A DNA stretch of 64,000 nt, taken from Pempheris klunzingeri (lineage: Eukaryota; Chordata; Actinopteri; Acropomatiformes; Pempheridae). The position numbers were made by a program, and so were the translations under genes. Every line of letters starts with the position of its first letter. Positions within the stretch are counted from its first letter, which is position 1. Positions 40,070 to 61,343 of this stretch are shown here, in pieces. Where the stretch lies: contig NC_092020.1 in NCBI RefSeq assembly GCF_042242105.1, positions 13,395,288 to 13,459,287 on the forward strand, written 5' to 3'. Below the pieces are notes generated by a model. That model did no database searches. It had not been told where the DNA came from and was given only the letters and a program-made list of their open reading frames with translations.

Positions 40070-40090
40070 TTCGCTGTCCATGGTGCTGAA
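40070..40090 (-). promoter_or_regulatory. RE1/NRSE-like silencer site after V8
   Basis: On the minus strand: TTCAGCACC, AT, GGACAGCG at canonical spacing. It lies 130 bp after the donor. This is the best match in the window, and it is inverted relative to the sites after V9-V14. Confidence 0.75.
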
Positions 40091-40466
40091 GTGCTCCTGA
40101 ACTGGTCTACTGCTGTTATATGAGGTCGTTGGGTTCGAATGACTTTGAACAGAACCTGGTTGAATTTCTTTCAACAATTTTGAATAATAATGATAATGAT
40201 GATAACAATAATAATAATAATAGCCAGTAGCAGTAGTATTCATGATATTTTATGGTATGTTTTCAATGGACTGCTAATAGGGCAAGACTGTCTCTTTAAT
40301 TTTCTATTTATTTTTTCTATTCTAGAGACACAAAGGCAATGTCAAGAGACATATCACGCAGATTTTGAAGTCTAACTTTTCTATGACATATGCAGTATCA
40401 AAGTCATCCTACTTACCAAAACGGCATACAAATGATCAGCCATGTCCATTCCATACTTTTTCCCTC

Positions 40467-40518
40467 TCTCTCTCTTTCTCTCTCTCTCTTTCTCCCTCTC
40501 ACTCTCTCTTTCCCTCTC
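40467..40518. repeat. (CT)n tract
   Basis: Simple pyrimidine repeat with TTTC and CCCTC interruptions. Confidence 0.88.
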
Positions 40519-40664
40519 TTCTAACCAGGCGTTGGTTGGTCGTCTTACACATCTATAATTTTGTCAAGAGAAAAAGGAGCTTTAAAGATTAAATATTACC
40601 TATACCGCATTTTTATGTTGAGTGCATCATCTGAAACACAGTGGTTATCTGAGTTTCATGTTTT

Positions 40665-40692
40665 AGCCTCTAAGTGACGCTGTTGCCTGGTA
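40665..40692 (+). promoter_or_regulatory. CSE-like CTCF element of V9
   Basis: CCTCTAAGTGACGCTGTTGC lies about 235 bp before the V9 start. It contains the CGCT core of the group 2 promoters. Confidence 0.78.
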
Positions 40693-40914
40693 AATCAATT
40701 CTGCTTGACATTGTGAGGCAGTGCTGCTCCCTCCCCTGTTACTGCATTTTACAAGAGGACATGGTCTGTGTTCCGTGCGAGCTGGGGCTCATCGGATGCA
40801 CAGTTGATTAACACTTCTATCGTTGATCGACATTGATCTGGAATTTATACTTTTTTCCTCACTGAGTTGAAATATTCAGTCAATCTTTCAGTTGGCTTGA
40901 GGACCCTCTTTAAC

Positions 40915-43344
40915 ATGGCATTTAAAAATCATCGAGACAGCGGAGTAAGACGGCGATTGCAAGGGGCAGCGTGTCTGTCTATTTTTCAGCTTATTTTTCT
41001 TAATCAAGCAGGTGCGCAGATCCGGTATTCGATCCCAGAGGAGATGAAAAAAGGGTCCCTTGTTGGTAACGTTGCACAAGACTTTGGTCTGGATCTGAAA
41101 AGGCTCCGTTCTGGCCGGGCCCGTATCGTGACCGGAGAAAACATCCAGTACACCGAGCTGAAAATAGACAAAGGGATTCTAGTCGTCAAAGAGAGAATCG
41201 ACCGAGAGCAGCTGTGTGGAGACGTAACACCGTGCAGTTTTGCCTTTGAGATTTTACTGGAAAAACCAATGGAGTTGCACCCTGTGACTATAGAAGTGTT
41301 GGACGTCAACGACAACGCTCCCACTTTCCAAAACAGTCACTTGGAATTTGAAATAAGCGAATCAGCTGCGCTTGGTTCCCATTTTGTTTTGGAGAGTGCG
41401 GACGATGCTGACGTTGGGGAAAACGGTCTGCAGAACTACGTTTTAACTCCGAACGAAAATTTTGTTTTGAAACAGCACGTAAATCCAGACGGCAGTAAAT
41501 ACGCCGAAATGGTGCTTCAGAAACCCTTAGACAGAGAGGAACAGCCACGCCTGTCTCTAAAGCTGTTGGCTGTGGACGGTGGAAATCCCCAGAGATCTGG
41601 TACAGTAAATATAGACGTCAACATTTTAGATGCCAATGATAATGCTCCTGTGTTTAATCAGTCTGTGTATAAGGCCACGGTGGTTGAAAATGCACCAAAG
41701 GGCACATGCATCGTTGCTGTGAATGCAAGCGACATAGACAGCGGTTCAAACGGACAAGTAACTTATTCCTTTTCAAAATCAAAAGCAGGAATAGCTGATT
41801 TGTTCGATATCGATGCAACTACTGGAAGAATATATGTGGCAAAGGAAATAGATTTTGAAAAAGACAAAAAAATTGAGTTCAGGGTTGAAGCTAAAGATCA
41901 AGGCGGACTGACAGACTCTAGCAAAATTGAAATTGAGATTTTCGATGTTAATGATAATGCTCCGGTCATAAGCGTCATGTCGTTCACGAGCCCGGTTTCA
42001 GAAGACTCCCCGGTTGGTACCACCATTGGCATAATTAATGTTAAAGATCTTGATTCGGGTGAAAATGGACAAGTAAGATGCATGATCGAAGGCAATGTTC
42101 CTTTTAAAATTAAATCCAATGTGAGAAATTATTATGCGTTGATTACTGATGCTGCTTTAGATCGCGAAAATCTTTCTGAATGTAATATCAGTGTTATAGC
42201 CTCGGACGCAGGATCACCTCCCCTCTCAACTAAAAGAACCTTTAATCTAAAGGTCTCAGATGTGAACGATAATGCTCCGGTATTTCCACATGGCTCGTAC
42301 AGTGCATTTATCGCAGAAAATAACTCTCCAGGTGTATCTATAGTAAGTGTAAATGCTAAAGACCCTGATGAAAACCAAAACGCCCGCGTTTCCTATATTT
42401 TGGAAGAGTGTGAGATCGGTGGATCTCCAGCTACTGAATACGTTTCTGTAAATGCAGAAAGTGGAGTGATACACGCAGTGCGCTCATTTGATTATGAGCA
42501 GATAAAAAAGCTGGTTTTCGTCGTCAAGGCGCAGGATGGAGGCTCCCCTCCACTCAGTAGTAATGTGACGGTGAAAGTACTGATCCAGGACCAGAACGAC
42601 AACCCCCCTCAGGTTCTGTACCCAGTCCAGACTGGAGGCTCTCTGGTGGATGAGATGGTGCCTCGTTCAGCAGATGTGGGCTACCTGGTGACTAAAGTGG
42701 TGGCTGTGGATGTGGACTCTGGACAGAATGCCTGGCTCTCCTATAAAGTGCAGAAAGCCACAGACAGGGCGCTGTTTGAAGTGGGCTCACAGAACGGAGA
42801 AATCAGAACTATCCGCCAAGTGACTGATAAAGATGCTGTGAGACAAAGACTGACTGTGATAGTGGAGGACAACGGGCAGCCCTCTCGTTCAGCTACAGTC
42901 ATTGTTAACGTGGCGGTGGCGGACAGCTTCCCTGAAGTGCTGTCGGAGTTCACTGACTTTACTCACGACAAGGAGTACAACGACAACCTGACTTTTTACT
43001 TAGTGTTGGCTCTGGCTGTAGTTTCCTTCCTCTTCATCACGTGTGTGGTGGTTATTATCTCAGTGAAAATCTACAGATGGAGACAGTCTCGCATCCTGTA
43101 TCACTCCAACCTGCCTGTGATTCCATATTATCCACCACGTTACTCAGACACTTTGGGGACAGGGACTCTCCAACACGTGTACAACTACGAGGTGTGCAGG
43201 ACGACTGACTCCAGAAAGAGTGACTGTAAGTTCGGCAGAGCTGGTAGTCAGAACGTGCTGATTATGGAGCCCAGTTCAACAGGGACGATGCAGCGGATAC
43301 AGAGTGAGAAGAGCATCCTGGATGAACCAGACTCTCCTCTAGAG
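40915..43344 (+). CDS. pcdh2g-like: V9: clustered protocadherin variable exon, group 2 (gamma-A-like)
   Basis: An 810-residue variable exon. ATG 40915 is the first ATG of the open frame. The leader of about 34 residues ends FLNQAGA before QIRYSI. EC1 carries LCGDVTPC, and from FGLDLKRLRSGRARIVTGE onward matches the other group 2 exons. EC2-EC3 are distinctive (ALGSHFVLESADDADVGENG). The membrane span is at about 692-717. The 93-residue tail contains YNYEVCRTTDSRKSDCKF and ends DEPDSPLE. The donor is GAG|GTGAGT, phase 0. A family-typical calcium motif is altered in EC4 (LDRENLSECN, with Cys replacing the usual Tyr). An RE1-like site follows at 43403. Confidence 0.95.
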
Positions 43345-43989
43345 GTGAGTTAAGTAATGCAGCTTCGTCTCTTTGCCGTTATTTCTCTATGTGCGTAGTC
43401 AGTTGCAGCACCAAGGACAGCATCGCAGTCCGTTTGGATCAGTCCTAGGAAGCATGTGTCTCTATTCATAGTCAGAGCTCCAAAAATGTATTGGCTTCAT
43501 GCTCTTTCAGCTGTTTTATTGTCTTACACGTTGATTGCGTTAATACTTCGTCGTATTTTATGTTACCTTGAGTGATCTACAGAGTCTCTTGATGTGCATT
43601 CACTCATTATTGTTGCAGAAAACTGGTTTACATGTGACTTAAATCGTGATAGTGACCAAAAATGCTCCTTTTAACATCAACTGGTTTTACCAGACTCCCA
43701 TTGATTTCCTTCCCTGCGCCTCCCGATACATTTTGATGGTATTTTGTTTTTCATTCATTTGTCTGCAGTGTATTGCAGAGCAGCGTTTATTCACATATTT
43801 GTTCATTATGAGAGCGGCATTCACATAAAGTTCAGGTTTAGTCTGTTTCTTATCTTAGTGTTTTTTGATTAATCATTGCCCTCAAAGTATCCTAATGTTT
43901 AGTTTATTTGATTATTCACCAGTGAAATGTAATATACCGCCTCATATTTGCACAAATCGTTCTAAATTGCATGAAGTTACTGATTTTGA
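43345..43989. other. V9-V10 spacer
   Basis: RE1-like site at the left, otherwise no feature. The spacer is nearly identical to the V10-V11 spacer (46712-47356), so the duplication unit includes it. Confidence 0.75.
43403..43423 (+). promoter_or_regulatory. RE1/NRSE-like site after V9
   Basis: TTGCAGCACC, AA, GGACAGCAT at canonical spacing, 58 bp after the donor. The left half has one extra mismatch compared with V10's site. Confidence 0.6.
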
Positions 43990-44015
43990 ACTCTAAGGGA
44001 CGCTGTTGGCCAATC
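43990..44015 (+). promoter_or_regulatory. CSE-like CTCF element of V10
   Basis: CTCTAAGGGACGCTGTTGGC lies about 270 bp before the V10 start. Confidence 0.8.
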
Positions 44016-44272
44016 CAACATAATCTTTGAAACATTACCACACTGTCCCCTCCCTCACCGCCGTGGCCTCTGAGAGAAAAGGAGATGTTGTGCATTATGT
44101 GGGCTGACATCCGAGGAAAACAGACTCGCATTCATTCATCCTTCTTTTCAGATATATACAGTAAATTAAAAGGACAAGATTATTCTCCACTTTAGAAGTA
44201 CATTCCCTTTTTTAGAGTTGTTATCGTGCCCCTGGATCTTTGTCGAACATATTTTCGTGTTTTTCTTGTGCT

Positions 44273-46711
44273 ATGGCATGTGGAGTACCACCCTACACTC
44301 GGTGCGTAAAATGGCGCTTTGGCTGCGGACAGAATTGGCAGCTTCTGTTTTTCCTTGTATATTTCATCCATATGGTCAGCGGACATATCCGATATTCAAT
44401 CCCAGAAGAGATGAAGAAAGGCTCCCTGATCGGTAATTTAGCTCAAGATCTTGGTCTGGATCTGAAAAGGCTCCGTTCTGGCCGGGCCCGTATCGTGACC
44501 GGAGAAAACATCCAGTACACCGAGCTGAAGGCAGACAAAGGGACTCTAGTCGTTAAAGAGAGAATAGACCGAGAGCAGCTTTGTGGAGACGTAACACCAT
44601 GTAGCTTCAGTTTTGAAGTGATTTTAGAAAACCCGATGGAGCTACATCAAATTACGGTTGAAATAACAGACATAAATGATCATTCGCCCACATTCAAAAG
44701 AGATAATATCCATTTTGAAATCAGCGAAATAGCTAATAGTGGGGCTCGATTTCCTTTGACCGGTGCAGAAGACCCAGATGTGGGTGTCAATGGACTGAGG
44801 GAATATTTACTGAGCGAGAATGAACATTTTGTTCTGAAACAAACCTCTCATGCAGATGGAAAGAAATACGCAGAGATGGTTTTACAGAAGCCTTTGGACA
44901 GAGAGACAAATCCTCATCTGTCCCTAAAGCTGATAGCCGTAGACGGTGGGACTCCGCAGAGATCTGGTACAGTAAATATAGATATAACTGTTCTTGATGC
45001 CAATGACAACGCGCCTGTATTTAATCAGTCTGTGTACAAAGCTACAGTGATGGAAAACTCTCCCAGAGATTCCTACGTTACCACTGTTAATGCTAGTGAC
45101 GCAGACTCCGGCTCAAATAGTATTGTAACGTATTATTTCTCAGATCTAAACAGTGGTCTCAGTGATTTGTTTATGATTGATGAAAAAACTGGTATTATTT
45201 TGATAACAGGTTTAGTTGATTACGAAAAAGAGAAAAAGTACGAACTTAGAATCGAGGCCAAAGATCAGGGAGGTTTGACAGATTCAAGCAAAGTGATAAT
45301 TGAAGTAACTGATGTAAATGACAACGCCCCTACCATAAGCGTCATGTCATTCACTAGTCCTGTGTCAGAGGACTCTCCTCCTGGTACAACTATTGGGATT
45401 ATTAATGTCAAAGACCTCGATTCAGGTGATAACGGACAAGTAAATTGTAGGATAGAACAAAATGCTCCTTTCAAGATTCAGTCTAATTTAAGAAATTACT
45501 ACACTTTGGTAACAGATACTGTATTAGATCGTGAAAGTGTTTCAGAGTATAACATCAGTGTAGTTGCGACAGATGCAGGGATGCCTCCTCTCTCTACTAG
45601 AAGAAGCTTCCAGTTAAAGGTCTCTGATGTGAACGACAATGCTCCAGTGTTTTCACAGGGTGTTTATAATGCGTTTATCACAGAGAATAACTCTCCAGGT
45701 ATTTCTGTTCTCACGCTGAGGGCTAAAGATCCTGATGAAAACCAAAACGCCCGAATATCTTATATTCTGGAGGATTCTGACCTTGATGGATCTCCTGTGT
45801 CTCACTGTGTGTCAGTTAATGCAGAAAGTGGAGTGATACACGCAGTGCGCTCATTTGATTATGAGCAGATAAAAAAGCTGGTTTTCGTCGTCAAAGCGCA
45901 GGATGGAGGCTCCCCTCCACTCAGTAGTAATGTGACAGTGAAAGTACTGATCCAGGACCAGAACGACAACCCCCCTCAGGTTCTGTACCCAGTCCAGACT
46001 GGAGGCTCTCTGGTGGATGAGATGGTGCCTCGTTCAGCAGATGTGGGCTACCTGGTGACTAAAGTGGTGGCTGTGGATGTGGACTCTGGACAGAATGCCT
46101 GGCTCTCCTATAAAGTGCAGAAAGCCACAGACAGGGCGCTGTTTGAAGTGGGCTCACAGAACGGAGAAATCAGAACTATCCGCCAAGTGACTGATAAAGA
46201 TGCTGTGAGACAAAGACTGACTGTGATAGTGGAGGACAACGGGCAGCCCTCTCGTTCAGCTACAGTCATTGTTAACGTGGCGGTGGCGGACAGCTTCCCT
46301 GAAGTGCTGTCGGAGTTCACTGACTTTACTCACGACAAGGAGTACAACGACAACCTGACTTTTTACTTAGTGTTGGCTCTGGCTGTAGTTTCCTTCCTCT
46401 TCATCACGTGTGTGGTGGTTATTATCTCAGTGAAAATCTACAGATGGAGACAGTCTCGCATCCTGTATCACTCCAACCTGCCTGTGATTCCATATTATCC
46501 ACCACGTTACTCAGACACTTTGGGGACAGGGACTCTCCAACACGTGTACAACTACGAGGTGTGCAGGACGACTGACTCCAGAAAGAGTGACTGTAAGTTC
46601 GGCAGAGCTGGTAGTCAGAACGTGCTGATAATGGAGCCCAGTTCAACAGGGACGATGCAGCGGATACAGAGTGAGAAGAGCATCCTGGATGAACCAGACT
46701 CTCCTCTAGAG
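44273..46711 (+). CDS. pcdh2g-like: V10: clustered protocadherin variable exon, group 2 (gamma-A-like)
   Basis: An 813-residue variable exon. ATG 44273 (GCTATGG) is the first ATG in the open frame. The leader of about 37 residues ends FIHMVSG before HIRYSI. EC1 has LCGDVTPC, EC1-EC6 run to about residue 685, the membrane span is at about 695-720, and the tail ends DEPDSPLE. The donor is GAG|GTGAGT, phase 0. It is a near copy of V11, with differences such as NLAQDL/NVAQDL, SEIANSG/SESANSG and LDANDN/LDNNDN. Its EC4-EC6 block (from SFTSPVSEDSPPG) also recurs in V13 and V15. Confidence 0.95.
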
Positions 46712-46770
46712 GTGAGTTAAGTAATGCAGCTTCGTCTCTGTGCCGTTATTTCTCTACGTGCGTAGTCAGT

Positions 46771-46791
46771 TTCAGCACCAAGGACAGCATC
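46771..46791 (+). promoter_or_regulatory. RE1/NRSE-like site after V10
   Basis: TTCAGCACC, AA, GGACAGCATC at canonical spacing, 60 bp after the donor. Confidence 0.7.
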
Positions 46792-47356
46792 GCAGTCCGT
46801 TTGGATCAGTTCTAGGAAGCATGTGTCTCTCTTCATAGTCAGAGCTCCAAAAATGTATTGGCTTCATGCTCTTTCAGCTGTTTTATTGTCTTACACGTTG
46901 ATTGCGTTAATACTTCGTCGTATTTTATGTTACCTTGAGTGATCTACAGAGTCTCTTGATGTGCATTCACTCGTTATTGTTGCAGAAAACTGGTTTACAT
47001 GTGACTTAAATCGTGATAGTGACCAAAAATTCTCCTTTTAGCATCAACTGGTTTTACCAGACTCCCATTGATTTCCTTCCCTGCGCCTCCCGATACATTT
47101 TGATGGTATTTTGTTTTTCATTCATTTGTCTGCAGTGTATTGCAGAGCAGCGTTTGTTCACATATTTGTTCATTATGAGAGCGGCATTCACATGAAGTTC
47201 AGGTTTAGTCTGTTTCATATCTTAGTGTTTTTTGATTAATCATTGCCCTCAAAGTATCCTAATGTTTAGTTTATTTGATTATTCACCAGTGAAATGTAAT
47301 ATACCGCTTCATATTTGCACAAATCGTTCTAAATTGCATGAAGTTACTGATTTTGG

Positions 47357-47382
47357 ACTCTAAGGGACGCTGTTGGCCAATC
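47357..47382 (+). promoter_or_regulatory. CSE-like CTCF element of V11
   Basis: CTCTAAGGGACGCTGTTGGC lies about 270 bp before the V11 start, identical to the V10 element. Confidence 0.8.
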
Positions 47383-47640
47383 CAACATAATCTTTGAAAC
47401 ATTACCACACTGTCCCCTCCCTCACCGCCGTGGCCTCTGAGAGAAAAGGAGATGTTGTGCATTATGTGGGCTGACATCCGAGGAAAACAGACTCGCATTC
47501 ATTCATCCTTCTATTCAGATATATACAGTAAATTAAAAGGACAAGATTATTCTCCACTTTAGAGGTACATTCCCTTTTTTTAGAGTTTTTGTCGTGCCCC
47601 TGGATCTTTGTCGAACATATTTTCGTGTTTTTCTTGTGCT

Positions 47641-50079
47641 ATGGCATGTGGAGTACCACCCTACACTCGGTGCGTAAAATGGCGCTTTGGCTGTGGACAG
47701 AATTGGCAGCTTCTGTTTTTCCTTGTATATTTCATCCATATGGTCAGCGGACATATCCGATATTCAATCCCAGAAGAGATGAAGAAAGGCTCCCTGATCG
47801 GTAATGTAGCTCAGGATCTTGGTCTGGATCTGAAAAGGCTCCGTTCTGGCCGGGCCCGTATCGTGACCGGAGAAAACATCCAGTACACCGAGCTGAAGGC
47901 AGACAAAGGGACTCTAGTCGTTAAAGAGAGAATAGACCGAGAGCAGCTTTGCGGAGACGTAACACCATGTAGCTTCAGTTTTGAAGTGATTTTAGAAAAC
48001 CCGATGGAGCTACATCAAATTACGGTTGAAATAACAGACATAAATGATCATTCGCCCACATTCAAAAGAGATAATATCCATTTTGAAATCAGCGAATCCG
48101 CTAATAGTGGGGCTCGATTTCCTTTGACCGGTGCAGAAGACCCAGATGTGGGTGTCAATGGACTGAGGGAATATTTACTGAGCGAGAATGAACATTTTGT
48201 TCTGAAACAAACCTCTCATGCAGATGGAAAGAAATACGCAGAGATGGTTTTACAGAAGCCTTTGGACAGAGAGACAAATCCTCATCTGTCCCTAAAGCTG
48301 ATAGCCGTAGACGGTGGGACTCCGCAGAGATCTGGTACAGTAAATATAGATATAACTGTTCTTGATAATAATGACAACGCGCCTGTATTTAATCAGTCTG
48401 TGTACAAAGCTACAGTGATGGAAAACTCTCCCAGAGATTCCTACGTCACCACTGTTAATGCTAGTGACGCAGACTCCGGCTCAAATAGTATTGTAACGTA
48501 TTATTTCTCAGATCTAAACAGTGGTCTCAGTGATTTGTTTATGATTGATGAAAAAAATGGTATTATTTTGATAACAGGTTTAGTTGATTATGAAAAGGAG
48601 AAAAAGTACGAACTTAGAATCGAGGCCAAAGATCAGGGAGGTTTGACAGATTCAAGCAAAGTGATAATTGAAGTAACTGATGTAAATGACAACGCCCCTA
48701 CCATAAGCGTCATGTCATTCACTAGTCCTGTGTCAGAGGACTCTCCTCCTGGTACAACTATTGGGATTATTAATGTCAAAGACCTCGATTCAGGTGATAA
48801 CGGACAAGTAAATTGTAGGATAGAACAAAATGCACCTTTCAAGATTCAGTCTAATTTAAGAAATTACTACACTTTGGTAACAGATACTGTATTAGATCGT
48901 GAAAGTGTTTCAGAGTATAACATCAGTGTAGTTGCGACAGATGCAGGGATGCCTCCTCTCTCTACTAGAAGAAGCTTCCAGTTAAAGGTCTCTGATGTGA
49001 ACGACAATGCTCCAGTGTTTTCACAGAGTGTTTATAATGCGTTTATCACAGAGAATAACTCTCCAGGTATTTCTGTTCTCACACTGAGAGCTAAAGATCC
49101 TGATGAAAACCAAAACGCCCGAATATCTTATATTCTGGAGGATTCTGACCTTGACGGATCTCCTGTGTCTCACTGTGTGTCAGTTAATGCAGAAAGTGGA
49201 GTGATACACGCAGTGCGCTCATTTGATTATGAGCAGATAAAAAAGCTGGTTTTCGTCGTCAAGGCGCAGGATGGAGGCTCCCCTCCACTCAGTAGTAATG
49301 TGACAGTGAAAGTACTGATCCAGGACCAGAACGACAACCCCCCTCAGGTTCTGTACCCAGTCCAGACTGGAGGCTCTCTGGTGGATGAGATGGTGCCTCG
49401 TTCAGCAGATGTGGGCTACCTGGTGACTAAAGTGGTGGCTGTGGATGTGGACTCTGGACAGAATGCCTGGCTCTCCTATAAAGTGCAGAAAGCCACAGAC
49501 AGGGCGCTGTTTGAAGTGGGCTCACAGAACGGAGAAATCAGAACTATCCGCCAAGTGACTGATAAAGATGCTGTGAGACAAAGACTGACTGTGATAGTGG
49601 AGGACAACGGGCAGCCCTCTCGTTCAGCTACAGTCATTGTTAACGTGGCGGTGGCGGACAGCTTCCCTGAAGTGCTGTCGGAGTTCACTGACTTTACTCA
49701 CGACAAGGAGTACAACGACAACCTGACTTTTTACTTAGTGTTGGCTCTGGCTGTAGTTTCCTTCCTCTTCATCACGTGTGTGGTGGTTATTATCTCGGTG
49801 AAAATCTACAGATGGAGACAGTCTCGCATTCTGTATCACTCCAACCTGCCTGTGATTCCATATTATCCACCACGTTACTCAGACACTTTGGGGACAGGGA
49901 CTCTCCAACACGTGTACAACTACGAGGTGTGCAGGACGACTGACTCCAGAAAGAGTGACTGTAAGTTCGGCAGAGCTGGTAGTCAGAACGTGTTGATAAT
50001 GGAGCCCAGTTCAACAGGGACGATGCAGCGGATACAGAGTGAGAAGAACATCCTGGATGAACCAGACTCTCCTCTAGAG
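47641..50079 (+). CDS. pcdh2g-like: V11: clustered protocadherin variable exon, group 2 (gamma-A-like)
   Basis: An 813-residue variable exon, the tandem copy of V10, with the same leader (start ATG 47641), EC1-EC6, membrane span (about 695-720) and tail. One cadherin linker reads LDNNDNAPV instead of the usual LDANDNAPV, from a cluster of changed bases at about 48364. The tail has SEKNILDEP where V10 has SEKSILDEP. The donor is GAG|GTTAGT, with T at +3, weaker by consensus than V10's GTGAGT. The 3' flank equals that of V13, not V10, so the unit boundary between the two duplications falls at or near the donor. Confidence 0.95.
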
Positions 50080-51065
50080 GTTAGTTAACAGTTTAACCTT
50101 GTCTGTGTTTCCTGAGTGTTGTAGCTTGATTAATTACGAACAGTTGCAGTTTGTACGGTCACTTTCAGCACCATGGACAGCATCTCAGTCTGTTTGAATG
50201 ACTTGATAGAAGTGCTACTTCTGTCAAACCCTATGCTGTTTTAGTGGTGGAAACCAAACGGTGTCTCAACGTATCTCCTCCAAACAGACAAATGTCTTTG
50301 CATTTAAATGGTGGCGAGAAGATTGTTTGGGTTGTTTAGCTAAAAATACCACTTACATTTTGGACATGTAAATGTTTGTTGTCATCATGAATTAGTAAAT
50401 TTATTAACTCTTAGTAATCCCAAGAAATAGAACACGAATCGATGAAGCCTGATGTTAAAGGCATCACATAGACCCATCTATGTCCCATACCTCTACAGCG
50501 TTCCTTCCTCCTTCACATCAGTGTATCAAAGTCACACTCTAGACTTCCTCCTTCATGGGTTTTTTGACTGCATTATACACTCACAAAAAGTCTTTTTCCC
50601 AGAGACTTTTCTCATCATGAGACAGTTTCATTTCTGTATTAGTTTCCATGTATTCCATGAACTTGTAAGCGATTGTAATGTTGTAGGGAATCATTACTGT
50701 GGTTCCATAATGAAAACACAACTATTTTCACATGGACCTCTGGTTATTGGATCATGTTGATCTTTTACTTCATTTAAGAATGGATGTTATGGGCTGCATT
50801 TTAAAGATATTGTCTGGACTGAAGATTTCACTTTTATTTTAGGTTTTTACTTTGCACTTGCAGTTTTTACACGTCATTGTTTACTTTTCCAGTGAATGAA
50901 TCACAGCACAATGTGTTGTGTTGAAAATTGCCATAATTAGTCATTTTAGTGTTGAGAAATCAACATTTAGGTGTTTTTTTCTAATAAATTAGAGACGTTT
51001 TAAACCATCAGTCTACAATAGGGTGCTAACACTGTGGTCTTGGTCTCATTTGATCTTCATCTTTT
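50080..51065. other. V11-V12 spacer
   Basis: RE1-like site, then about 0.9 kb without other features. The 102-codon frame at 50452-50760 also occurs in the duplicate spacer (57522-57830) but has no recognisable domain and is probably chance kept by recent duplication. Confidence 0.7.
50164..50184 (+). promoter_or_regulatory. RE1/NRSE-like site after V11
   Basis: TTCAGCACC, AT, GGACAGCATC at canonical spacing, 85 bp after the donor. Identical after V13. Confidence 0.72.
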
Positions 51066-51091
51066 AGACTCTAAGGGACGCTGTTGGCCAG
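51066..51091 (+). promoter_or_regulatory. CSE-like CTCF element of V12
   Basis: GACTCTAAGGGACGCTGTTG lies about 260 bp before the V12 start. Confidence 0.8.
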
Positions 51092-51150
51092 TATAATATT
51101 TTCTGTGTCTTGTCGTCATTCAGTCCTTCCCCCTTACTGACTACACGGTG

Positions 51151-51498
51151 ATGAAGGCTCTCTGTGTTTTGTCGACGTTTAAGGCACCTAACAGAGAACA
51201 TGGTCTCACAGACTTACGGGTAAAGATTGAAGGCGTTTTAGATGCAACCAGGAAACTGATATATCACAACCAGATTTCGCGTCATATCAAGTGGATATTA
51301 ATCTCTTTCTGCTATTTTTGTTGCCACGATGGCAACTCTAGGATCTCTCACCTACTTGTCTTTAAGATGGCGATTGTTTTCTGGATTTCGACGGCAAACA
51401 GGACTGCTGTTGATGCTGCTTCATGTGGTGAACCTGGTAGGTGGGCAGATTCGTTATTCGGTACCGGAGGAGATGAAGAAAGGCTCTGTTATTGGTAA
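51151..51498 (+). other. Upstream ORF overlapping the V12 start
   Basis: An ATG about 80 bp after the CSE opens a 115-codon frame that runs out of frame across the V12 start codon (51329). It has no recognisable domain. If transcription starts upstream of it, it could reduce V12 translation. The same frame occurs upstream of V14 (58219-58566). Confidence 0.35.
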
Positions 51499-53779
51499 CG
51501 TGGCGCAGGATTTGGGTCTGGATCTGAAAAGGCTCCGTTCTGGGCGGGCCCGTATCGTGACCGGAGAAGACATCCAGTACACCGAGCTGAAGGCAGACAA
51601 AGGGACTCTAGTCGTGAATGAGAGAATAGACCGAGAGCAGCTTTGTGGAGACGTGACACCATGTAGCTTCAGCTTTGAGGTGATTTTAGAAAACCCGATC
51701 GAACTGCACAGAATAACTGTTGAGGTTTTGGATATAAACGATCACGCTCCTGTTTTCCCAAACAAAGATAAGCCTATCCGCCTCGAAATAAGTGAATCTG
51801 CTGTCGTTGGAGTTCAGTTTCCACTGCAGAGCGCAGAGGATTTAGATGTGGGGCAAAATGCATTGCAAGATTATGTTTTGTCACCAAACGACAATTTTAT
51901 ATTGAAGCAACATACAAATCCAGACGGCAGTAAATATGTTGAAATGGTTCTCCAGAAACCTTTAGACAGAGAGCGACATCCACATTTGTCTTTGAAATTA
52001 ATCGCAGTTGACGGAGGAACACCGCAGAGATCTGGTACAGTAAATATAGATATTACTGTTTTAGATGCCAACGACAATGCTCCAGTTTTTAACCAATCAG
52101 TGTATAAAGCATCTGTGAAGGAAAACTTGATGAAAGGCACGAACATAATAACAGTAAACGCCACAGACGCTGATAGCGGTTCAAATGGCCTTATTACTTA
52201 CAGTTTGTCTAAAACGAAAGGAAGTGCAGCAGATGTATTCAGTATAGATGAAAACACCGGAATCATTTCTGTATCTGGTCTGATAGATTATGAAAAGAAC
52301 AGAAAATACGAGGTCAGAGTAGAGGCAAAGGATCAAGGTGGCCTAACCGGAACAAGTAAAGTTATATTTGATGTTGTAGATGTGAACGATAATGCACCAA
52401 TTATGATTATGATGTCATTTTCCAGCCCCTTATCTGAGGATGCACATCCTGGGACAACAGTTGCTGTTTTTAACGTAAAAGATGCAGATTCTGAGAAAAA
52501 TGGGCAAATAAAATGTTCTATAGATGGAAAACTTCCATTTAAGATCGAGTCATCTCTGACAAACTATTACAATTTGATCTCAGACCAACGTTTTGATAGA
52601 GAATCAGTATCAGAATATAACATAACAATAACAGCCACTGACTTTGGGTCTCCCCCTCTTTCCAGCTCAACAAAATTACATCTTAAAATTTCTGACGTAA
52701 ACGACAACGCGCCATTATTTGATAAAAGCGTTTATTCTGCTTACGTCACAGAGAATAATTCCCCTGGAATTTCCATATTCGCTGTGAGCGCGCGAGACTC
52801 TGATTGGAATCAGAACGCGAGAATATCATATCTTTTAGAGGACACACAAGTCAGTGGTAGTCCAGTTTCTACTTATGTGTCTTTGAACGCAGAAACTGGA
52901 GTTCTCAGCGCGGTTCGTTCCTTTGATTATGAGCAAATGAAAGAGCTTCAGCTAGTAGTCAAAGCGCAGGATGGAGGCTCCCCTCCACTCAGTAGTAATG
53001 TGACCGTGAAAGTACTGATCCAGGACCAGAACGACAACCCCCCTCAGGTTCTGTACCCAGTCCAGACTGGAGGCTCTCTGGTGGATGAGATGGTGCCTCG
53101 TTCAGCAGATGTGGGCTACCTGGTGACTAAAGTGGTGGCTGTGGATGTGGACTCTGGACAGAATGCCTGGCTCTCCTATAAAGTGCAGAAAGCCACAGAC
53201 AGGGCGCTGTTTGAAGTGGGCTCACAGAACGGAGAAATCAGAACTATCCGCCAAGTGACTGATAAAGATGCTGTGAGACAAAGACTGACTGTGATAGTGG
53301 AGGACAACGGGCAGCCCTCTCGTTCAGCTACAGTCATTGTTAACGTGGCGGTGGCGGACAGCTTCCCTGAAGTGCTGTCGGAGTTCACTGACTTTACTCA
53401 CGACAAGGAGTACAACGACAACCTGACTTTTTACTTAGTGTTGGCTCTGGCTGTAGTTTCCTTCCTCTTCATCACGTGTGTGGTGGTTATTATCTCAGTG
53501 AAAATCTACAGATGGAGACAGTCTCGCATCCTGTATCACTCCAACCTGCCCGTGATTCCATATTATCCACCACGTTACTCAGACACTTTGGGGACAGGGA
53601 CTCTCCAACACGTGTACAACTACGAGGTGTGCAGGACGACTGACTCCAGAAAGAGTGACTGTAAGTTCGGCAGAGCTGGTAGTCAGAACGTGTTGATAAT
53701 GGAGCCCAGTTCAACAGGGACGATGCAGCGGATACAGAGTGAGAAGAACATCCTGGATGAACCAGACTCTCCTCTAGAG
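51329..53779 (+). CDS. pcdh2g-like: V12: clustered protocadherin variable exon, group 2 (gamma-A-like)
   Basis: An 817-residue variable exon from ATG 51329 (CGATGG). The leader of about 39 residues ends HVVNLVGG before QIRYSV. EC1 has LCGDVTPC, and EC2 has a two-residue longer entry (FPNKDKPIRLEISES). EC4 is private to V12/V14, with the calcium motif FDRESVSEYN in place of LDRE. The membrane span is at about 699-724 and the tail ends DEPDSPLE. The donor is GAG|GTTAGT. V12 and V14 are duplicates 7068 bp apart. They are almost the same except for a dense patch at the EC3-EC4 junction (about 52376-52480), where V12 reads IMIMMSFSSPLSEDAHPG. Confidence 0.95.
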
Positions 53780-54475
53780 GTTAGTTAAATAATGTCGTTT
53801 TGCTTCTGTGACTGTATTTGCGTCTCTGTTTATAATTTGCGTTTGCACTCATAGAGAACAGTTTGTCACACTGAGGTCAATTTCAGAACCATGGACAGTA
53901 TCCCAGTTAGTTTGGTTCCTTTCATGAAAAACCTTCTTTTCCAAAAATCTTCGTAGATGCAATACTGGCTTTCATACTGTGTGCTATGGAAATTAAGCAA
54001 ATATTCACCCATTAAGCATTTCTAAAATATGAAATTATCACATATATATGCACAGCATATACTACCAAGTTTTGGAATTTCGCTCTTACAGTGTTCACAC
54101 TTCTAATTTAAAGCAAGGTCAAAGTGTTAATCAATGTAAGCAACTAAAGGCACTTGGGTGAATCTTTGGGGAAATTTTAATCACTAAGATGGAGATTTTA
54201 TACAACTATGTTTTTGTTCTTTAGTGCGCAGTGATTGTCTGCTTTCTGTAATTCACGTTTTTATTTTTTTATTAAATACATAGTATAGTATGGAATCATA
54301 CATGGTGAGGGTCTCGGTGTACTAGGTAGTTCGGCATATGCTAATTCATGTATTTATTCTCGGTTTCATTTATTTGTGTTGGTATCGTCTCTGAAAATCC
54401 AGAATTCCGCTTGCAGATGTAATGAACATTGAATTTACAATTGTTTTCTCTACTTAAATTGATATTCGTTGACTG
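53780..54475. other. V12-V13 spacer
   Basis: RE1-like site then AT-rich sequence without other features. It is unrelated to the V14-V15 spacer apart from its regulatory sites. Confidence 0.7.
53882..53902 (+). promoter_or_regulatory. RE1/NRSE-like site after V12
   Basis: TTCAGAACC, AT, GGACAGTATC at canonical spacing, 102 bp after the donor. The left half has one mismatch (GAACC for GCACC). Confidence 0.58.
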
Positions 54476-54500
54476 GGCTCTAAGGGACGCTGTTGGTCAA
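54476..54500 (+). promoter_or_regulatory. CSE-like CTCF element of V13
   Basis: GGCTCTAAGGGACGCTGTTG lies about 240 bp before the V13 start. Confidence 0.8.
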
Positions 54501-54722
54501 GTAAAAAAAATCCGAGCCGAGGTTTAGGCGGTGCCTCTCTCCATGATGCTCTGTGCAGACTGAATGTGCTTCAGACAGTAAACGGCGTTGAAGCGACCGC
54601 ATAGACTGTGTTTGAGGTGAGATTTTTCACTGCGAGGGAAAGGAAGCAGGATAATACATAATCCGTGGTTTTTCTAAGGGAATTATTTCTGTAGCATCAT
54701 TTCATGTGATTTATTTGGTAAC

Positions 54723-57149
54723 ATGGATAACGGAAAACAGACTCCAAGATGGCGTTTGTGCTACAGACTGACATGGCAAAGCATTCTTTTTCTTCTTTTT
54801 TTCAATCATATTGCCAATGGTCAAATACGTTATTCAGTCCCAGAAGAAATGAGGAAGGGATCCGTTATTGGTAACGTCGCACAAGACCTTGGCTTGGATC
54901 TGAAAAGGCTCCGTTCTGGCCGGGCCCGTATCGTGACGGGAGAAAGCTCTCAGTACACCGAGCTGAAGGCAGACAAAGGGACTTTGGTTGCTAATGAGAG
55001 GATAGACCGAGAGCAGCTTTGTGGAGACATAACGCCTTGCAGCTTCAGCTTTGATTTGATATTAGAAAAGCCGATGGAGCTACATCACGTTACAGTAGAA
55101 GTATTGGACATAAATGATAATTCACCGTCTTTTCATCAGCACGACATGCAGTTGACGATTGGAGAATCAGCAGCACCGGGAGCACGTTTTGTTTTGCCAA
55201 AAGCAAATGATCCTGATGTAGGAGTCAACGGGCTTCAGGACTATAATCTGTCTCCGAATGAAAATTTTGTTTTGAAAAAGCATTCAAATTCGGACGGTAG
55301 TAAACATGCGGAGATGGTCCTTGAGAAACCGCTGGATAGAGAGCGATATCCATTTCTGTCTCTAAAGCTGATAGCAGTGGATGGTGGGACGCCACAGAAA
55401 TCTGGTACAGTAAATATAGATATCACTGTCCTGGATATTAATGATAATTCTCCTATTTTTAATCAGTCAGTCTACAAGGCCACTGTAATGGAAAATGCCC
55501 CAAGAGGTACCTATATTGCTACTGTGAATGCCACTGACGCAGATACCGGATCAAATGGTTTGATTCATTATTCTATTTCCAAAATGCAAGGACGTATTGA
55601 CAGTATATTCGAAATTAACAAGACAACGGGAGCGATATTTCTGTCAGGGCAGGTTGACTATGAGAAAACAAAGAAATATGAAATACGTATTGAAGCAACG
55701 GACCAAGGAGCTTTAGCAGACTCGAGTAAAGTTATAGTCGAGGTGACTGACGTGAATGATAACCCACCTATCATTAATGTGATGTCATTCACTAGTCCTG
55801 TGTCAGAGGACTCTCCTCCTGGTACAACTATTGGGATTATTAATGTCAAAGACCTCGATTCAGGTGATAACGGACAAGTAAATTGTAGGATAGAACAAAA
55901 TGCTCCTTTCAAGATTCAGTCTAATTTAAGAAATTACTACACTTTGGTAACAGATACTGTATTAGATCGTGAAAGTGTTTCAGAGTATAACATCAGTGTA
56001 GTTGCGACAGATGCAGGGATGCCTCCTCTCTCTACTAGAAGAAGCTTCCAGTTAAAGGTCTCTGATGTGAACGACAATGCTCCAGTGTTTTCACAGGGTG
56101 TTTATAATGCGTTTATCACAGAGAATAACTCTCCAGGTATTTCTGTTCTCACGCTGAGGGCTAAAGATCCTGATGAAAACCAAAACGCCCGAATATCTTA
56201 TATTCTGGAGGATTCTGACCTTGATGGATCTCCTGTGTCTCACTGTGTGTCAGTTAATGCAGAAAGTGGAGTGATACACGCAGTGCGCTCATTTGATTAT
56301 GAGCAGATAAAAAAGCTGGTTTTCGTCGTCAAGGCGCAGGATGGAGGCTCCCCTCCACTCAGTAGTAATGTGACAGTGAAAGTACTGATCCAGGACCAGA
56401 ACGACAACCCCCCTCAGGTTCTGTACCCAGTCCAGACTGGAGGCTCTCTGGTGGATGAGATGGTGCCTCGTTCAGCAGATGTGGGCTACCTGGTGACTAA
56501 AGTGGTGGCTGTGGATGTGGACTCTGGACAGAATGCCTGGCTCTCCTATAAAGTGCAGAAAGCCACAGACAGGGCGCTGTTTGAAGTGGGCTCACAGAAC
56601 GGAGAAATCAGAACTATCCGCCAAGTGACTGATAAAGATGCTGTGAGACAAAGACTGACTGTGATAGTGGAGGACAACGGGCAGCCCTCTCGTTCAGCTA
56701 CAGTCATTGTTAACGTGGCGGTGGCGGACAGCTTCCCTGAAGTGCTGTCGGAGTTCACTGACTTTACTCACGACAAGGAGTACAACGACAACCTGACTTT
56801 TTACTTAGTGTTGGCTCTGGCTGTAGTTTCCTTCCTCTTCATCACGTGTGTGGTGGTTATTATCTCAGTGAAAATCTACAGATGGAGACAGTCTCGCATC
56901 CTGTATCACTCCAACCTGCCTGTGATTCCATATTATCCACCACGTTACTCAGACACTTTGGGGACAGGGACTCTCCAACACGTGTACAACTACGAGGTGT
57001 GCAGGACGACTGACTCCAGAAAGAGTGACTGTAAGTTCGGCAGAGCTGGTAGTCAGAACGTGCTGATAATGGAGCCCAGTTCAACAGGGACGATGCAGCG
57101 GATACAGAGTGAGAAGAGCATCCTGGATGAACCAGACTCTCCTCTAGAG
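54723..57149 (+). CDS. pcdh2g-like: V13: clustered protocadherin variable exon, group 2 (gamma-A-like)
   Basis: An 809-residue variable exon from ATG 54723 (AACATGG). The leader of about 33 residues ends NHIANG before QIRYSV. EC1 has LCGDITPC. EC1-EC3 are individual (HDMQLTIGESAAPGARF; LDINDNSPIF linker). From about 55785 (SFTSPVSEDSPPG) to the end the DNA equals V10/V11, so EC4-EC6, membrane span (about 691-716) and tail come from a shared conversion tract. The donor is GAG|GTTAGT, and the 3' flank equals V11's. V13 therefore looks like an original 5' half fused to a recently copied V11-like 3' half and flank. Confidence 0.95.
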
Positions 57150-58134
57150 GTTAGTTAACAGTTTAACCTTGTCTGTGTTTCCTGAGTGTTGTAGCTTGAT
57201 TAATTACGAACAGTTGCAGTTTGTACGGTCACTTTCAGCACCATGGACAGCATCTCAGTCTGTTTGAATGACTTGATAGAAGTGCTACTTCTGTCAAACC
57301 CTATGCTGTTTTAGTGGTGGAAACCAAATGGTGTCTCAACGTATCTCCTCCAAACAGACAAATGTCTTTGCATTTAAATGGTGGCGAGAAGATTGTTTGG
57401 GTTGTTTAGCTAAAAATACCACTTACATTTTGGACATCTAAATGTTTGTTGTCATCATTAATTAGTAAATTTATTAACTCTTAGTAATCCCATGAAATAG
57501 AACACGAATCGATGAAGCCTGATGTTAAAGGCATCACATAGACCCATCTATGTCCCATACCTCTACAGCGTTCCTTCCTCCTTCACATCAGTGTATCAAA
57601 GTCACACTCTACACTTCCTCCTTCATGGGTTTTTTGACTGCATTATACACTCACAAAAAGCCTTTTTCCCAGAGACTTTTCTCATCATGAGACAGTTTCA
57701 TTTCTGTATTAGTTTTCATGTATTCCATGAACTTGTAAGCGATTGTAATGTTGTAGGGAATCATTACTGTGGTTCCATAATGAAAACACAACTATTTTCA
57801 CATGGACCTCTGGTTATTGGATCATGTTGATCTTGTACTTCATTTAAGAATGGATGTTATGGGCTGCATTTTAAAGATATTGTCTGGACTGAAGATTTCA
57901 CTTTTATTTTAGGTTTTTACTTTGCACTTGCAGTTTTTACACGTCATTGTTTACTTTTCCAGTGAATGAATCACAGCACAATGTGTTGTGTTGAAAATTG
58001 CCATAATTAGTCATTTTAGTGTTGAAAAATCAACATTTAGGTGTTTTTTCTAATAAATTAGAGACGTTTTAAACCATCAGTCTATAATAGGGTGCTAACA
58101 CTGTGGTCTTGGTCTCATTTGATCTTCATCTTTT
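57150..58134. other. V13-V14 spacer
   Basis: Near-identical copy of the V11-V12 spacer. No feature beyond the RE1-like site. Confidence 0.75.
57234..57254 (+). promoter_or_regulatory. RE1/NRSE-like site after V13
   Basis: TTCAGCACC, AT, GGACAGCATC at canonical spacing, 85 bp after the donor. A copy of the V11 site. Confidence 0.72.
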
Positions 58135-58160
58135 AGACTCTAAGGGACGCTGTTGGCCAG
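58135..58160 (+). promoter_or_regulatory. CSE-like CTCF element of V14
   Basis: GACTCTAAGGGACGCTGTTG lies about 255 bp before the V14 start, identical to V12. Confidence 0.8.
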
Positions 58161-58218
58161 TATAATATTTTCTGTGTCTTGTCGTCATTCAGTCCTTCCC
58201 CTTACTGACTACACGGTG

Positions 58219-58566
58219 ATGAAGGCTCTCTGTGTTTTGTCGACGTTTAAGGCACCTAACAGAGAACATGGTCTCACAGACTTACGGGTAAAGATTGAAG
58301 GCGTTTTAGATGCAACCAGGAAACTGATATATCACAACCAGATTTCGCGTCATATCAAGTGGATATTAATCTCTTTCTGCTATTTTTGTTGCCACGATGG
58401 CAACTCTAGGATCTCTCACCTACTTGTCTTTAAGATGGCGATTGTTTTCTGGATTTCGACGGCAAACAGGACTGCTGTTGATGCTGCTTCATGTGGTGAA
58501 CCTGGTAGGTGGGCAGATTCGTTATTCGGTACCGGAGGAGATGAAGAAAGGCTCTGTTATTGGTAA
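58219..58566 (+). other. Upstream ORF overlapping the V14 start
   Basis: Counterpart of the 115-codon frame upstream of V12, open over the same length and out of frame across ATG 58397. Confidence 0.35.
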
Positions 58567-60847
58567 CGTGGCGCAGGATTTGGGTCTGGATCTGAAAAGG
58601 CTCCGTTCTGGGCGGGCCCGTATCGTGACCGGAGAAGACATCCAGTACACCGAGCTGAAGGCAGACAAAGGGACTCTAGTCGTGAATGAGAGAATAGACC
58701 GAGAGCAGCTTTGTGGAGACGTGACACCATGTAGCTTCAGCTTTGAGGTGATTTTAGAAAACCCGATGGAACTGCACAGAATAACTGTTGAGGTTTTGGA
58801 TATAAACGATCACGCTCCTGTTTTCCCAAACAAAGATAAGCCTATCCGCCTCGAAATAAGTGAATCTGCTGTCGTTGGAATTCAGTTTCCACTGCAGAGC
58901 GCAGAGGATTTAGATGTGGGGCAAAATGCATTGCAAGATTATGTTTTGTCACCAAACGACAATTTTATATTGAAGCAACATACAAATCCAGACGGCAGTA
59001 AATATGTTGAAATGGTTCTCCAGAAACCTTTAGACAGAGAGCGACATCCACATTTGTCTTTGAAATTAATCGCAGTTGACGGAGGAACACCGCAGAGATC
59101 TGGTACAGTAAATATAGATATTACTGTTTTAGATGCCAACGACAATGCTCCAGTTTTTAACCAATCAGTGTATAAAGCATCTGTGAAGGAAAACTTGATG
59201 AAAGGCACGAACATAATAACAGTAAACGCCACAGACGCTGATAGCGGTTCATATGGCCTTATCACTTACAGTTTGTCTAAAACGAAAGGAAGTGCAGCAG
59301 ATATATTCAGTATAGATGAAAACACCGGAATCATTTCTGTATCTGGTCTGATAGATTATGAAAAGAACAGAAAATACGAGGTCAGAGTAGAGGCAAAGGA
59401 TCAAGGTGGCCTAACCGGAACAAGTAAAGTTATATTTGATGTATTTGATGTGAACGATAATGCCCCCGTTATAAACATTATGTCATTTTCTAGTCCTGTA
59501 TCTGAGGATGCACATCCTGGTACCACAATTGCTATTTTGAATATAAAAGATGCAGATTCTGAGAAAAATGGGCAAATAAAATGTTCTATAGATGGAAAAC
59601 TTCCATTTAAGATCGAGTCATCTCTGACAAACTATTACAATTTGATCTCAGACCAACGTTTTGATAGAGAATCAGTATCAGAATATAACATAACAATAAC
59701 AGCCACTGACTTTGGGTCTCCCCCTCTTTCCAGCTCAAAAAAATTACATCTTAAAATTTCTGACGTAAACGACAACGCGCCATTATTTGATAAAAGCGTT
59801 TATTCTGCTTACGTCACAGAGAATAATTCCCCTGGAATTTCCATATTCGCTGTGAGCGCGCGAGACTCTGATTGGAATCAGAACGCGAGAATATCATATC
59901 TTTTAGAGGACACACAAGTCAGTGGTAGTCCAGTTTCTACTTATGTGTCTTTGAACGCAGAAACTGGAGTTCTCAGCGCGGTTCGTTCCTTTGATTATGA
60001 GCAAATTAAAGAGCTTCAGCTAGTAGTCAAAGCGCAGGATGGAGGCTCCCCTCCACTCAGTAGTAATGTGACCGTGAAAGTACTGATCCAGGACCAGAAC
60101 GACAACCCCCCTCAGGTTCTGTACCCAGTCCAGACTGGAGGCTCTCTGGTGGATGAGATGGTGCCTCGTTCAGCAGATGTGGGCTACCTGGTGACTAAAG
60201 TGGTGGCTGTGGATGTGGACTCTGGACAGAATGCCTGGCTCTCCTATAAAGTGCAGAAAGCCACAGACAGGGCGCTGTTTGAAGTGGGCTCACAGAACGG
60301 AGAAATCAGAACTATCCGCCAAGTGACTGATAAAGATGCTGTGAGACAAAGACTGACTGTGATAGTGGAGGACAACGGGCAGCCCTCTCGTTCAGCTACA
60401 GTCATTGTTAACGTGGCGGTGGCGGACAGCTTCCCTGAAGTGCTGTCGGAGTTCACTGACTTTACTCACGACAAGGAGTACAACGACAACCTGACTTTTT
60501 ACTTAGTGTTGGCTCTGGCTGTAGTTTCCTTCCTCTTCATCACGTGTGTGGTGGTTATTATCTCAGTGAAAATCTACAGATGGAGACAGTCTCGCATCCT
60601 GTATCACTCCAACCTGCCCGTGATTCCATATTATCCACCACGTTACTCAGACACTTTGGGGACAGGGACTCTCCAACACGTGTACAACTACGAGGTGTGC
60701 AGGACGACTGACTCCAGAAAGAGTGACTGTAAGTTCGGCAGAGCTGGTAGTCAGAACGTGCTGATAATGGAGCCCAGTTCAACAGGGACGATGCAGCGGA
60801 TACAGAGTGAGAAGAACATCCTGGATGAACCAGACTCTCCTCTAGAG
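58397..60847 (+). CDS. pcdh2g-like: V14: clustered protocadherin variable exon, group 2 (gamma-A-like)
   Basis: An 817-residue variable exon, duplicate of V12, with the same leader, EC1-EC3, private FDRESVSEYN in EC4, membrane span (about 699-724) and tail. Differences include ENPMEL/ENPIEL, VVGIQF/VVGVQF, GSYGLITY/GSNGLITY and the EC3-EC4 patch (VINIMSFSSPVSEDAHPG with TTIAILNIKD). The donor is GAG|GTGAGG; without splicing the frame would run 20 codons further to 60907. Its RE1-like site has the expanded half-site spacing, and its 3' flank is not the duplicate of V12's, so the copied segment ended at the donor. Confidence 0.95.
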
Positions 60848-60963
60848 GTGAGGTGCAATACGCAAAGTATTTACTCGTGTAAACATTGTTTTTCTAAAGT
60901 GACATAAAATTACAATACATCGTTTTTTGCAGTTTAATCCACAACACATGGATCAGGTTCTTT

Positions 60964-60989
60964 TTCAGCACCACAGTGCGGACAGTTCC
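60964..60989 (+). promoter_or_regulatory. Expanded-spacing RE1/NRSE-like site after V14
   Basis: Left half TTCAGCACC and right half GGACAGTTCC are separated by 7 bases instead of 2, which is 16 bp centre to centre. REST is known to accept such expanded spacing. Confidence 0.55.
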
Positions 60990-61316: not shown

Positions 61317-61343
61317 TGGACTCCAAGTGACGCTGTTGGTCAA
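61317..61343 (+). promoter_or_regulatory. CSE-like CTCF element of V15
   Basis: GACTCCAAGTGACGCTGTTG lies about 250 bp before the V15 start. It has the AGTGACGCTG form also seen at V9. Confidence 0.8.

What the first reader, a model, noticed from the sequence alone, without database searches (positions are those of the whole stretch)
40070..60989. RE1/NRSE-like site after every complete group 2 variable exon
TTCAGCACC-NN-GGACAGC-type words lie within about 60-130 bp of the donors of V8 (inverted), V9, V10, V11, V12, V13 and V14. One more lies about 500 bp after V3 (11969, inverted). REST/NRSF sites are known in mammalian Pcdh clusters, but a near one-per-exon array at a fixed place just past the splice donor is striking. 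It would tie each isoform to neuron-restricted silencing, and being intronic it would travel with the exon in duplication.
Basis: partly seen in the sequence, partly recalled or inferred. Interest (0 to 1): 0.75.

Follow-up and report, generated by a model that had tools for sequence, protein, structure and literature searches.

The report
REST silencer sites between protocadherin exons
A fish-like cluster of neuronal cell-identity genes carries a near-perfect binding site for the neuron-gene silencer REST in most of the gaps between its interchangeable exons; this kind of control is already known for these genes, but here the sites sit in a set place in one exon family and are copied together with the exon that follows them.

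Summary
The window has 8 sites with at most 1 mismatch to the RE1 core TCAGCACCnnGGACAG (shuffle mean 0.02); a ninth, after V14, is split by 7 bp. All 7 complete group 2 exons (V8-V14) have one 59-129 bp past the splice donor.

In 310 kb around it, 45 of 65 gaps following γ-side exons hold a site, and none lies in coding sequence. Half-site gaps are 2, 7, 8 or 9 bp, never 3-6 or 10-18, which is REST's spacing rule. Donor anchoring is a trait of one subgroup (17 of 30 units); V15 has no site.

The idea that the site travels with the exon it follows fails: of 18 near-identical inter-exon pairs, 17 share the downstream exon and 0 the upstream one.

REST control of clustered protocadherins is published: fugu promoters (PMC3601302, citing Tan 2010) and human α/γ alternate exons, in coding sequence (PMC8096226). 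So this is a new member of a known kind with an unusual layout. REST binding and silencing here are inferred, not shown.

The parts
40070..40090 (-). RE1 after V8, perfect core, inverted, 129 bp past donor
43404..43424 (+). RE1 after V9, one core mismatch, 59 bp past donor
46771..46791 (+). RE1 after V10, perfect core, 59 bp past donor
50164..50184 (+). RE1 after V11, perfect core, 84 bp past donor
53882..53902 (+). RE1 after V12, one core mismatch, 102 bp past donor
57234..57254 (+). RE1 after V13, perfect core, 84 bp past donor
60964..60989 (+). split RE1 after V14: both half-sites intact, 7-bp gap, 116 bp past donor
11969..11989 (-). RE1 after V3, perfect core, inverted, 503 bp past donor
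29122..29142 (-). RE1 after V6, perfect core, inverted, 2107 bp past donor; not in the finding
37538..39940 (+). variable exon V8 (unit E25), donor GT at 39941
40915..43344 (+). variable exon V9 (E26), donor 43345; start is the first in-frame ATG
44273..46711 (+). variable exon V10 (E27), donor 46712
47641..50079 (+). variable exon V11 (E28), donor 50080
51329..53779 (+). variable exon V12 (E29), donor 53780
54723..57149 (+). variable exon V13 (E30), donor 57150
58397..60847 (+). variable exon V14 (E31), donor 60848
40666..40685 (+). CGCT-box promoter element (CSE-like) before V9
43989..44008 (+). CGCT-box promoter element before V10
47356..47375 (+). CGCT-box promoter element before V11
51067..51086 (+). 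CGCT-box promoter element before V12
54476..54495 (+). CGCT-box promoter element before V13
58136..58155 (+). CGCT-box promoter element before V14
61319..61338 (+). CGCT-box promoter element before V15

Best explanation
Each element is an RE1/NRSE, a binding site for the repressor REST. It sits at the head of a duplicating module: RE1, then CGCT-box promoter, then the next variable exon. In non-neuronal cells and progenitors REST would bind these sites along the cluster and keep nearby promoters shut; when REST falls in neurons the promoters become open to the usual isoform-choice machinery. Shown here: the sites, their excess over chance, REST-type gap sizes, absence from coding sequence, donor anchoring in subgroup B, an RE1 island in otherwise unalignable flanks of several units, and co-duplication with the downstream exon. 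Inferred: REST binding, silencing, and which promoter is the target.
For: 8 sites against 0.02 expected. Half-site gaps in 310 kb: 43 at 2 bp, 2 at 7, 6 at 8, 1 at 9 plus one overlapping a canonical site, none at 3-6 or 10-18. Genome-wide exact counts: gap 2 297, gap 5 1, gap 7 6, gap 8 26, gap 9 26, gap 12 2. 45 of 65 units have a site, permuted-motif mean 0.04, maximum 3 (300 permutations), no site in coding sequence. Without using the consensus, RE1 words lead the list of shared 8-mers after subgroup B donors: TTCAGCAC 9 of 24, shuffle maximum 6. Donor anchoring: 14 of 19 sites within 200 bp, 4.26 expected, 0 of 100,000 placements reach 14. Blocks duplicate with the downstream exon, 17 of 18 pairs. 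Function in relatives: deleting NRSEs from Pcdh constructs turns expression in tadpoles from neural to ubiquitous (PMC3601302, passages).
Against: No binding or expression data. 20 of 65 units have no site. Among 25 non-redundant blocks, short local matches fall on the RE1 in 4 cases against 51 on the promoter element, so the RE1 is less constant. V9 and V12 have a mismatched left half-site, and the V14 site has a 7-bp gap, a class with only 6 exact genome-wide matches and inactive in a human reporter assay where only 8 and 9 bp worked (PMC9903721, passages). In the window itself only 5 of the 7 sites are distinct.
Confidence: 0.82

Rival explanations
1. Passive hitchhiking: one ancestral RE1 was copied by tandem duplication and the copies persist only because they are young.
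For: V9/V10 and V11/V13 downstream regions are 98-99% identical; 12 families of near-identical blocks exist in the cluster.
Against: RE1 words are the most shared ones among 24 non-redundant post-donor regions whose flanks differ; the inverted V3 and V8 sites share only the 19-22 bp core with other units; no site fell in the coding part of exons.
Confidence: 0.08
2. One reading: the site silences mainly the exon it follows and is part of that exon's unit.
For: In subgroup B it lies a tight 94 +/- 25 bp (14 non-redundant sites) past that exon's donor, while its distance to the next ATG varies more.
Against: 0 of 18 near-identical blocks share the upstream exon, 17 of 18 the downstream one. The promoter of the upstream exon is about 2.7 kb away; the next promoter element is about 0.2-1.1 kb away for the donor-proximal subgroup B sites.
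Confidence: 0.1
3. The conserved word is an RNA-level element just past the donor, such as an intronic splicing enhancer for joining to the constant exons.
For: Tight spacing from the donor in subgroup B.
Against: Near-donor sites on the opposite strand in V8, E33 and E35; sites far from donors in subgroups A and C; the gap spectrum fits a zinc-finger DNA reader.
Confidence: 0.03
4. Chance matches.
For: One mismatch is allowed, and at 2 mismatches 4 of 500 permuted motifs also reach 8 hits in the window.
Against: 0.02 expected at 1 mismatch; 45 of 65 units against mean 0.04 for permuted motifs.
Confidence: 0.005

Closest known systems
NRSEs of the fugu protocadherin cluster (Tan et al. 2010, NAR 38:4985, PMC2926608; text not held; known here from passages of the review PMC3601302)
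   Same: Multiple canonical and non-canonical NRSEs in a fish protocadherin cluster, placed in promoter regions rather than coding sequence.
   Different: The passages read do not mention anchoring past the donor, subgroup-specific orientation and gap size, or linkage of the site to the downstream exon in duplication. Whether the paper itself reports any of these could not be checked.
Human PCDH alpha/gamma NRSE repertoire (PMC8096226; introduction, results section 'A repertoire of NRSEs' and discussion read)
   Same: At least one NRSE for each alternate alpha and gamma exon; canonical and split motifs; directional binding.
   Different: There the sites are inside the variable exons; here 0 of 53 matches lie in the coding part of exons.
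Non-canonical NRSE of the mammalian HS5-1 enhancer (PMC8096226, PMC3601302 passages)
   Same: Half-sites with an enlarged gap, in a protocadherin cluster.
   Different: Here split sites recur between exons, above all in subgroup C (5 of 8 units, all with 7- or 8-bp gaps), not in one distal enhancer; enhancers of this cluster were not looked for.
CSE/CGCT-box promoter element of clustered protocadherins (PMC4978886, passages)
   Same: A CGCT-containing element about 250 bp before the ATG of V9-V15, as the described element lies about 200 bp before it.
   Different: Not the RE1; it is the other conserved island of each subgroup B block.

Membership tests
RE1/NRSE element | Two half-sites TCAGCACC and GGACAG in this order with a 2-bp gap | tested here: met
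   8 window sites with at most 1 mismatch, 6 perfect; V14 does not meet this one
RE1/NRSE element | Non-canonical sites only with enlarged gaps, not 3-6 bp | tested here: met
   Gap spectrum in 310 kb and genome-wide exact counts for gaps 2, 5, 7, 8, 9, 12
RE1/NRSE element | Split sites active with 8 or 9 bp (human reporter, PMC9903721) | tested here: inconclusive
   V14 has 7 bp; elsewhere in the cluster 6 sites have 8 bp and 1 has 9 bp; activity not testable
RE1/NRSE element | REST binding in vivo and REST-dependent silencing | not testable with these tools
   No ChIP or expression data at hand
REST-controlled clustered protocadherin locus (fugu type) | Variable exons of a clustered protocadherin locus with constant exons downstream | tested here: met
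   Pfam and PDB matches for 5 and 2 of 15 window exons; constant-exon motifs, recognised from recalled words, at 13302620, 13593279 and 13598692
REST-controlled clustered protocadherin locus (fugu type) | NRSEs outside coding sequence, in promoter or inter-exon DNA | tested here: met
   0 of 53 matches in the coding part of the exons
REST-controlled clustered protocadherin locus (fugu type) | Loss of the NRSE makes expression ubiquitous | not testable with these tools
   Reported for Pcdh constructs in tadpoles (PMC3601302 passages)
Mammalian exon-embedded NRSE arrangement | NRSE lies inside each variable exon | tested here: not met
   No site up to 1 mismatch in coding sequence; only a 3-mismatch coding word in V1-V6

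The most novel reading that the evidence does not exclude
The RE1 is the head element of the duplicating unit: breakpoints fall in the homogenised 3' end of the exons, so each new isoform is born with its own silencer, promoter and ectodomain. Paralogue clades then keep different REST grammars (A: minus strand, far from the donor; B: plus strand, just past the donor, mostly 2-bp gap; C: plus strand, 7- or 8-bp gap). Because split sites silence more weakly than canonical ones (PMC9903721 passages), clades could be released at different REST levels, giving a built-in order of isoform onset during neurogenesis.
Probability: 0.25. Interest if true: 0.65.

Novelty: new member of a known kind. Interest (0 to 1): 0.4.

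Why it matters
One REST site per isoform, known from human coding exons, is approached in this genome by a different placement, which argues that isoform-level REST control of clustered protocadherins is selected for. Natural variants within one cluster (with a site, without, split, inverted) make it directly testable which promoter a site controls and whether site strength sets when an isoform comes on.

Tried and rejected
Chance was rejected. A shared transposable element as carrier was considered: at the threshold used, the V3 site matches other blocks only over 19-22 bp of the core (to V8, V11, V13), and the V6 site matches none; no repeat library was searched. A mammal-like exonic site was considered: a 13-of-19 match recurs in coding sequence of V1-V6 but has 3 core mismatches and was not counted. 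No Rfam family reaches its gathering score in the window.

Controls against me: half-sites in swapped order gave 7 hits over gaps 0-30, and with the right half inverted 17, of which 11 at gap 21; the four of these that were printed are one repeated sequence, at places inside exons mapped. In one search the flank identities partly rest on short overlaps of an aligner with free ends, so only those agreeing are used. No position weight matrix was used.

Literature: searches listed no paper whose title or abstract start reports donor-anchored NRSEs in a fish cluster. Of the listed papers I opened eight in part: sections of PMC8096226, and passages only of PMC1852091, PMC4978886, PMC3601302, PMC3531662, PMC9903721, PMC7811963 and PMC4777549; PMC2764143 was opened by its DOI, passages only. 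The word NRSE is absent from PMC1852091, PMC4978886 and PMC2764143. The key paper, Tan et al. 2010, is not held; what I recall of its abstract (fugu, in silico NRSEs, 5' intergenic location) comes from no call, so absence of prior report is not claimed. The second protocadherin locus expected in a teleost was not found: a protein search scored 55 of 379 candidates, all on C9. The REST gene of this genome was not looked for.

Full report
What the window is. It lies at C9:13395288-13459287 of a 646-Mb genome. It has 15 long + strand open frames; the 5 of 15 scanned against Pfam show cadherin repeats, a protocadherin-type N-terminal domain and a cadherin cytoplasmic segment, and the 2 of 15 compared with solved structures match protocadherin gamma B4 best. 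Neighbouring DNA shows an alpha-type constant exon upstream (13302620), then 66 long exons E2-E67, then gamma-type constant exons (13593279 and 13598692). The constant exons were recognised by recalled short motifs. Window exons V1-V15 are E18-E32.

The observation. With the core consensus used for zebrafish (TCAGCACCnnGGACAG; PMC3531662, passages) the window has 6 perfect and 2 one-mismatch sites, against 0.02 on average in 100 dinucleotide shuffles. V14 has both half-sites intact but 7 bp apart. The 7 sites after V8-V14 start 59-129 bp past the donor. Sites also lie after V3 and, unreported, after V6. V15 has none.

REST signature. Over 310 kb, allowing one mismatch, the half-sites in REST order occur 43 times with a 2-bp gap, 2 with 7, 6 with 8 and 1 with 9 (a second gap-9 hit overlaps a canonical site), and never with 1, 3-6 or 10-18; single hits at gaps 0, 23 and 27 look like background, and hits at 19, 22, 25 and 26 overlap or adjoin canonical sites. 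The swapped-order control gave 7 hits and the inverted-half control 17 over gaps 0-30, 11 of these at gap 21. Genome-wide exact counts repeat the pattern: 297 (gap 2), 1 (gap 5), 6 (gap 7), 26 (gap 8), 26 (gap 9), 2 (gap 12); other gaps were not counted genome-wide. Human REST accepts 2 bp and enlarged gaps but not 3-6 (PMC8096226, discussion read), and in human reporters only split sites with 8 and 9 bp silenced (PMC9903721, passages). The protein reading these sites is therefore very probably REST; the V14 7-bp case is the weakest.

Layout in the cluster. 45 of 65 units (E2-E66) have a site between one exon and the next, against a mean of 0.04 (maximum 3) for 300 permuted motifs. None of the 53 matches (52 places) falls in the coding part of the exons, counted without the last 260 bp of each frame, although that part is 148 of 310 kb; the few matches inside those last 260 bp lie past the donors. 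Three layouts follow exon subgroups defined by their 3' tails. Subgroup A: 16 of 22 units with a site, all 19 sites on the minus strand, 0 of 22 units with one within 200 bp of the donor. Subgroup B (30 units whose donor my pattern found): 20 with a site, all plus strand, 17 of 30 within 60-148 bp of the donor. Subgroup C: 5 of 8, plus strand, all split (gap 7 or 8). V8 and its look-alikes E33 and E35 have an inverted site 133, 114 and 114 bp past the donor, counted from the core; E33 and E35 were left out of the 30 because my pattern missed their donors. E1, E24, E58 and E67 belong to none of the three. An 18-kb piece of the alpha cluster has 6 sites, all minus strand, around 5 exons.

Constraint or hitchhiking. 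After V9/V10 and V11/V13 the DNA is recent copy. Among the other pairs of V8-V14 blocks, local matches at E 0.001 or better cover only two islands: about 40 bp around the RE1 (4 pairs among V10-V13) and 22-42 bp at a CGCT-box promoter element about 250 bp before the ATG; V8 and V14 match the others of this set only at the second. To avoid circularity I collapsed subgroup B to 24 non-redundant units and counted words in the first 200 bp after the donor: TTCAGCAC (9 of 24) and TCAGCACC (8 of 24) lead, with a maximum of 6 for any 8-mer in 200 base-shuffled sets. Against this, among 25 non-redundant blocks short matches fall on the RE1 4 times, on the promoter element 51 times and elsewhere once, with 4 longer matches, so the RE1 is less constant than the promoter element. 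Of 19 sites in the 24 units 14 lie within 200 bp of the donor, mean 94 bp, s.d. 25 (4.26 expected; 0 of 100,000 random placements reached 14).

What it travels with. Of 18 near-identical inter-exon pairs (90% identity over at least 70%), 17 have near-identical downstream ectodomains (95% over at least 80% of the first 1400 bp) and 0 have near-identical upstream ones. From the exon side, 17 of 25 near-identical exon pairs share the upstream block, 8 share neither and 0 share the downstream block. The pairs form 12 families, so they are not 18 independent events, and 3 of these families (E19/E21, E38/E42/E43, E44/E46) have no RE1; the remaining 13 pairs, with an RE1, all share the downstream exon. 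Exon 3' ends are nearly identical across V9-V14 while most ectodomains differ, so breakpoints plausibly fall in the homogenised 3' end, and the RE1 becomes the first feature of the new module. This overturns the idea that the site moves with the exon it follows.

Mechanism and precedent. The best reading is REST silencing of promoters in the array outside neurons. In fugu, canonical and non-canonical NRSEs lie in Pcdh promoters, and deleting NRSEs from Pcdh constructs makes expression ubiquitous in tadpoles (PMC3601302, passages, citing Tan 2010). In human each alternate alpha and gamma exon holds at least one NRSE inside the exon (PMC8096226, section read). So the kind is known. The placement past the donor, the clade-specific orientation and gap, and the module linkage are what this case adds; whether Tan et al. 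already reported any of these could not be checked.

Noticed in passing
window 46765-46806, 53875-53914, 57228-57269: Conservation around the V10, V12 and V13 sites runs about 14 bp past the 3' end of the 21-bp RE1 (CAGTCYGTTTG-like), beyond the known motif; perhaps a partner site or extra finger contacts.
   Followed up: partly
C9:13555144 to about 13578500, some 96-120 kb past the window: Exon subgroup C carries split RE1s with 7- or 8-bp gaps in 5 of 8 units, and a perfect 8-bp split site on the minus strand precedes its first exon.
   Followed up: partly
C5:3910286, 3951041, 3954232, 3957289: Four RE1s (gaps 8, 9, 2, 2) lie within 50 kb on another contig, possibly another REST target cluster.
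   Followed up: no
window 243, 4138, 9750, 13405, 19229, 25299 (minus strand): A 13-of-19 RE1-like word recurs in coding sequence of V1-V6; 3 core mismatches, probably just conserved coding sequence.
   Followed up: partly
window 44273-50079 and 51329-60847: V10 and V11 exons are 99-100% identical in all bins and V12 and V14 93-100%, very recent duplications; 3' ends are nearly identical in all of V9-V14, as expected of regional gene conversion.
   Followed up: yes
window 39941-40090 and C9:13460229-13469308: V8, E33 and E35 share a different 3' tail from subgroup B and an inverted RE1 past the donor, interspersed among subgroup B exons.
   Followed up: partly
window 40460-40522: CT-rich simple repeat between V8 and V9.
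   Followed up: no
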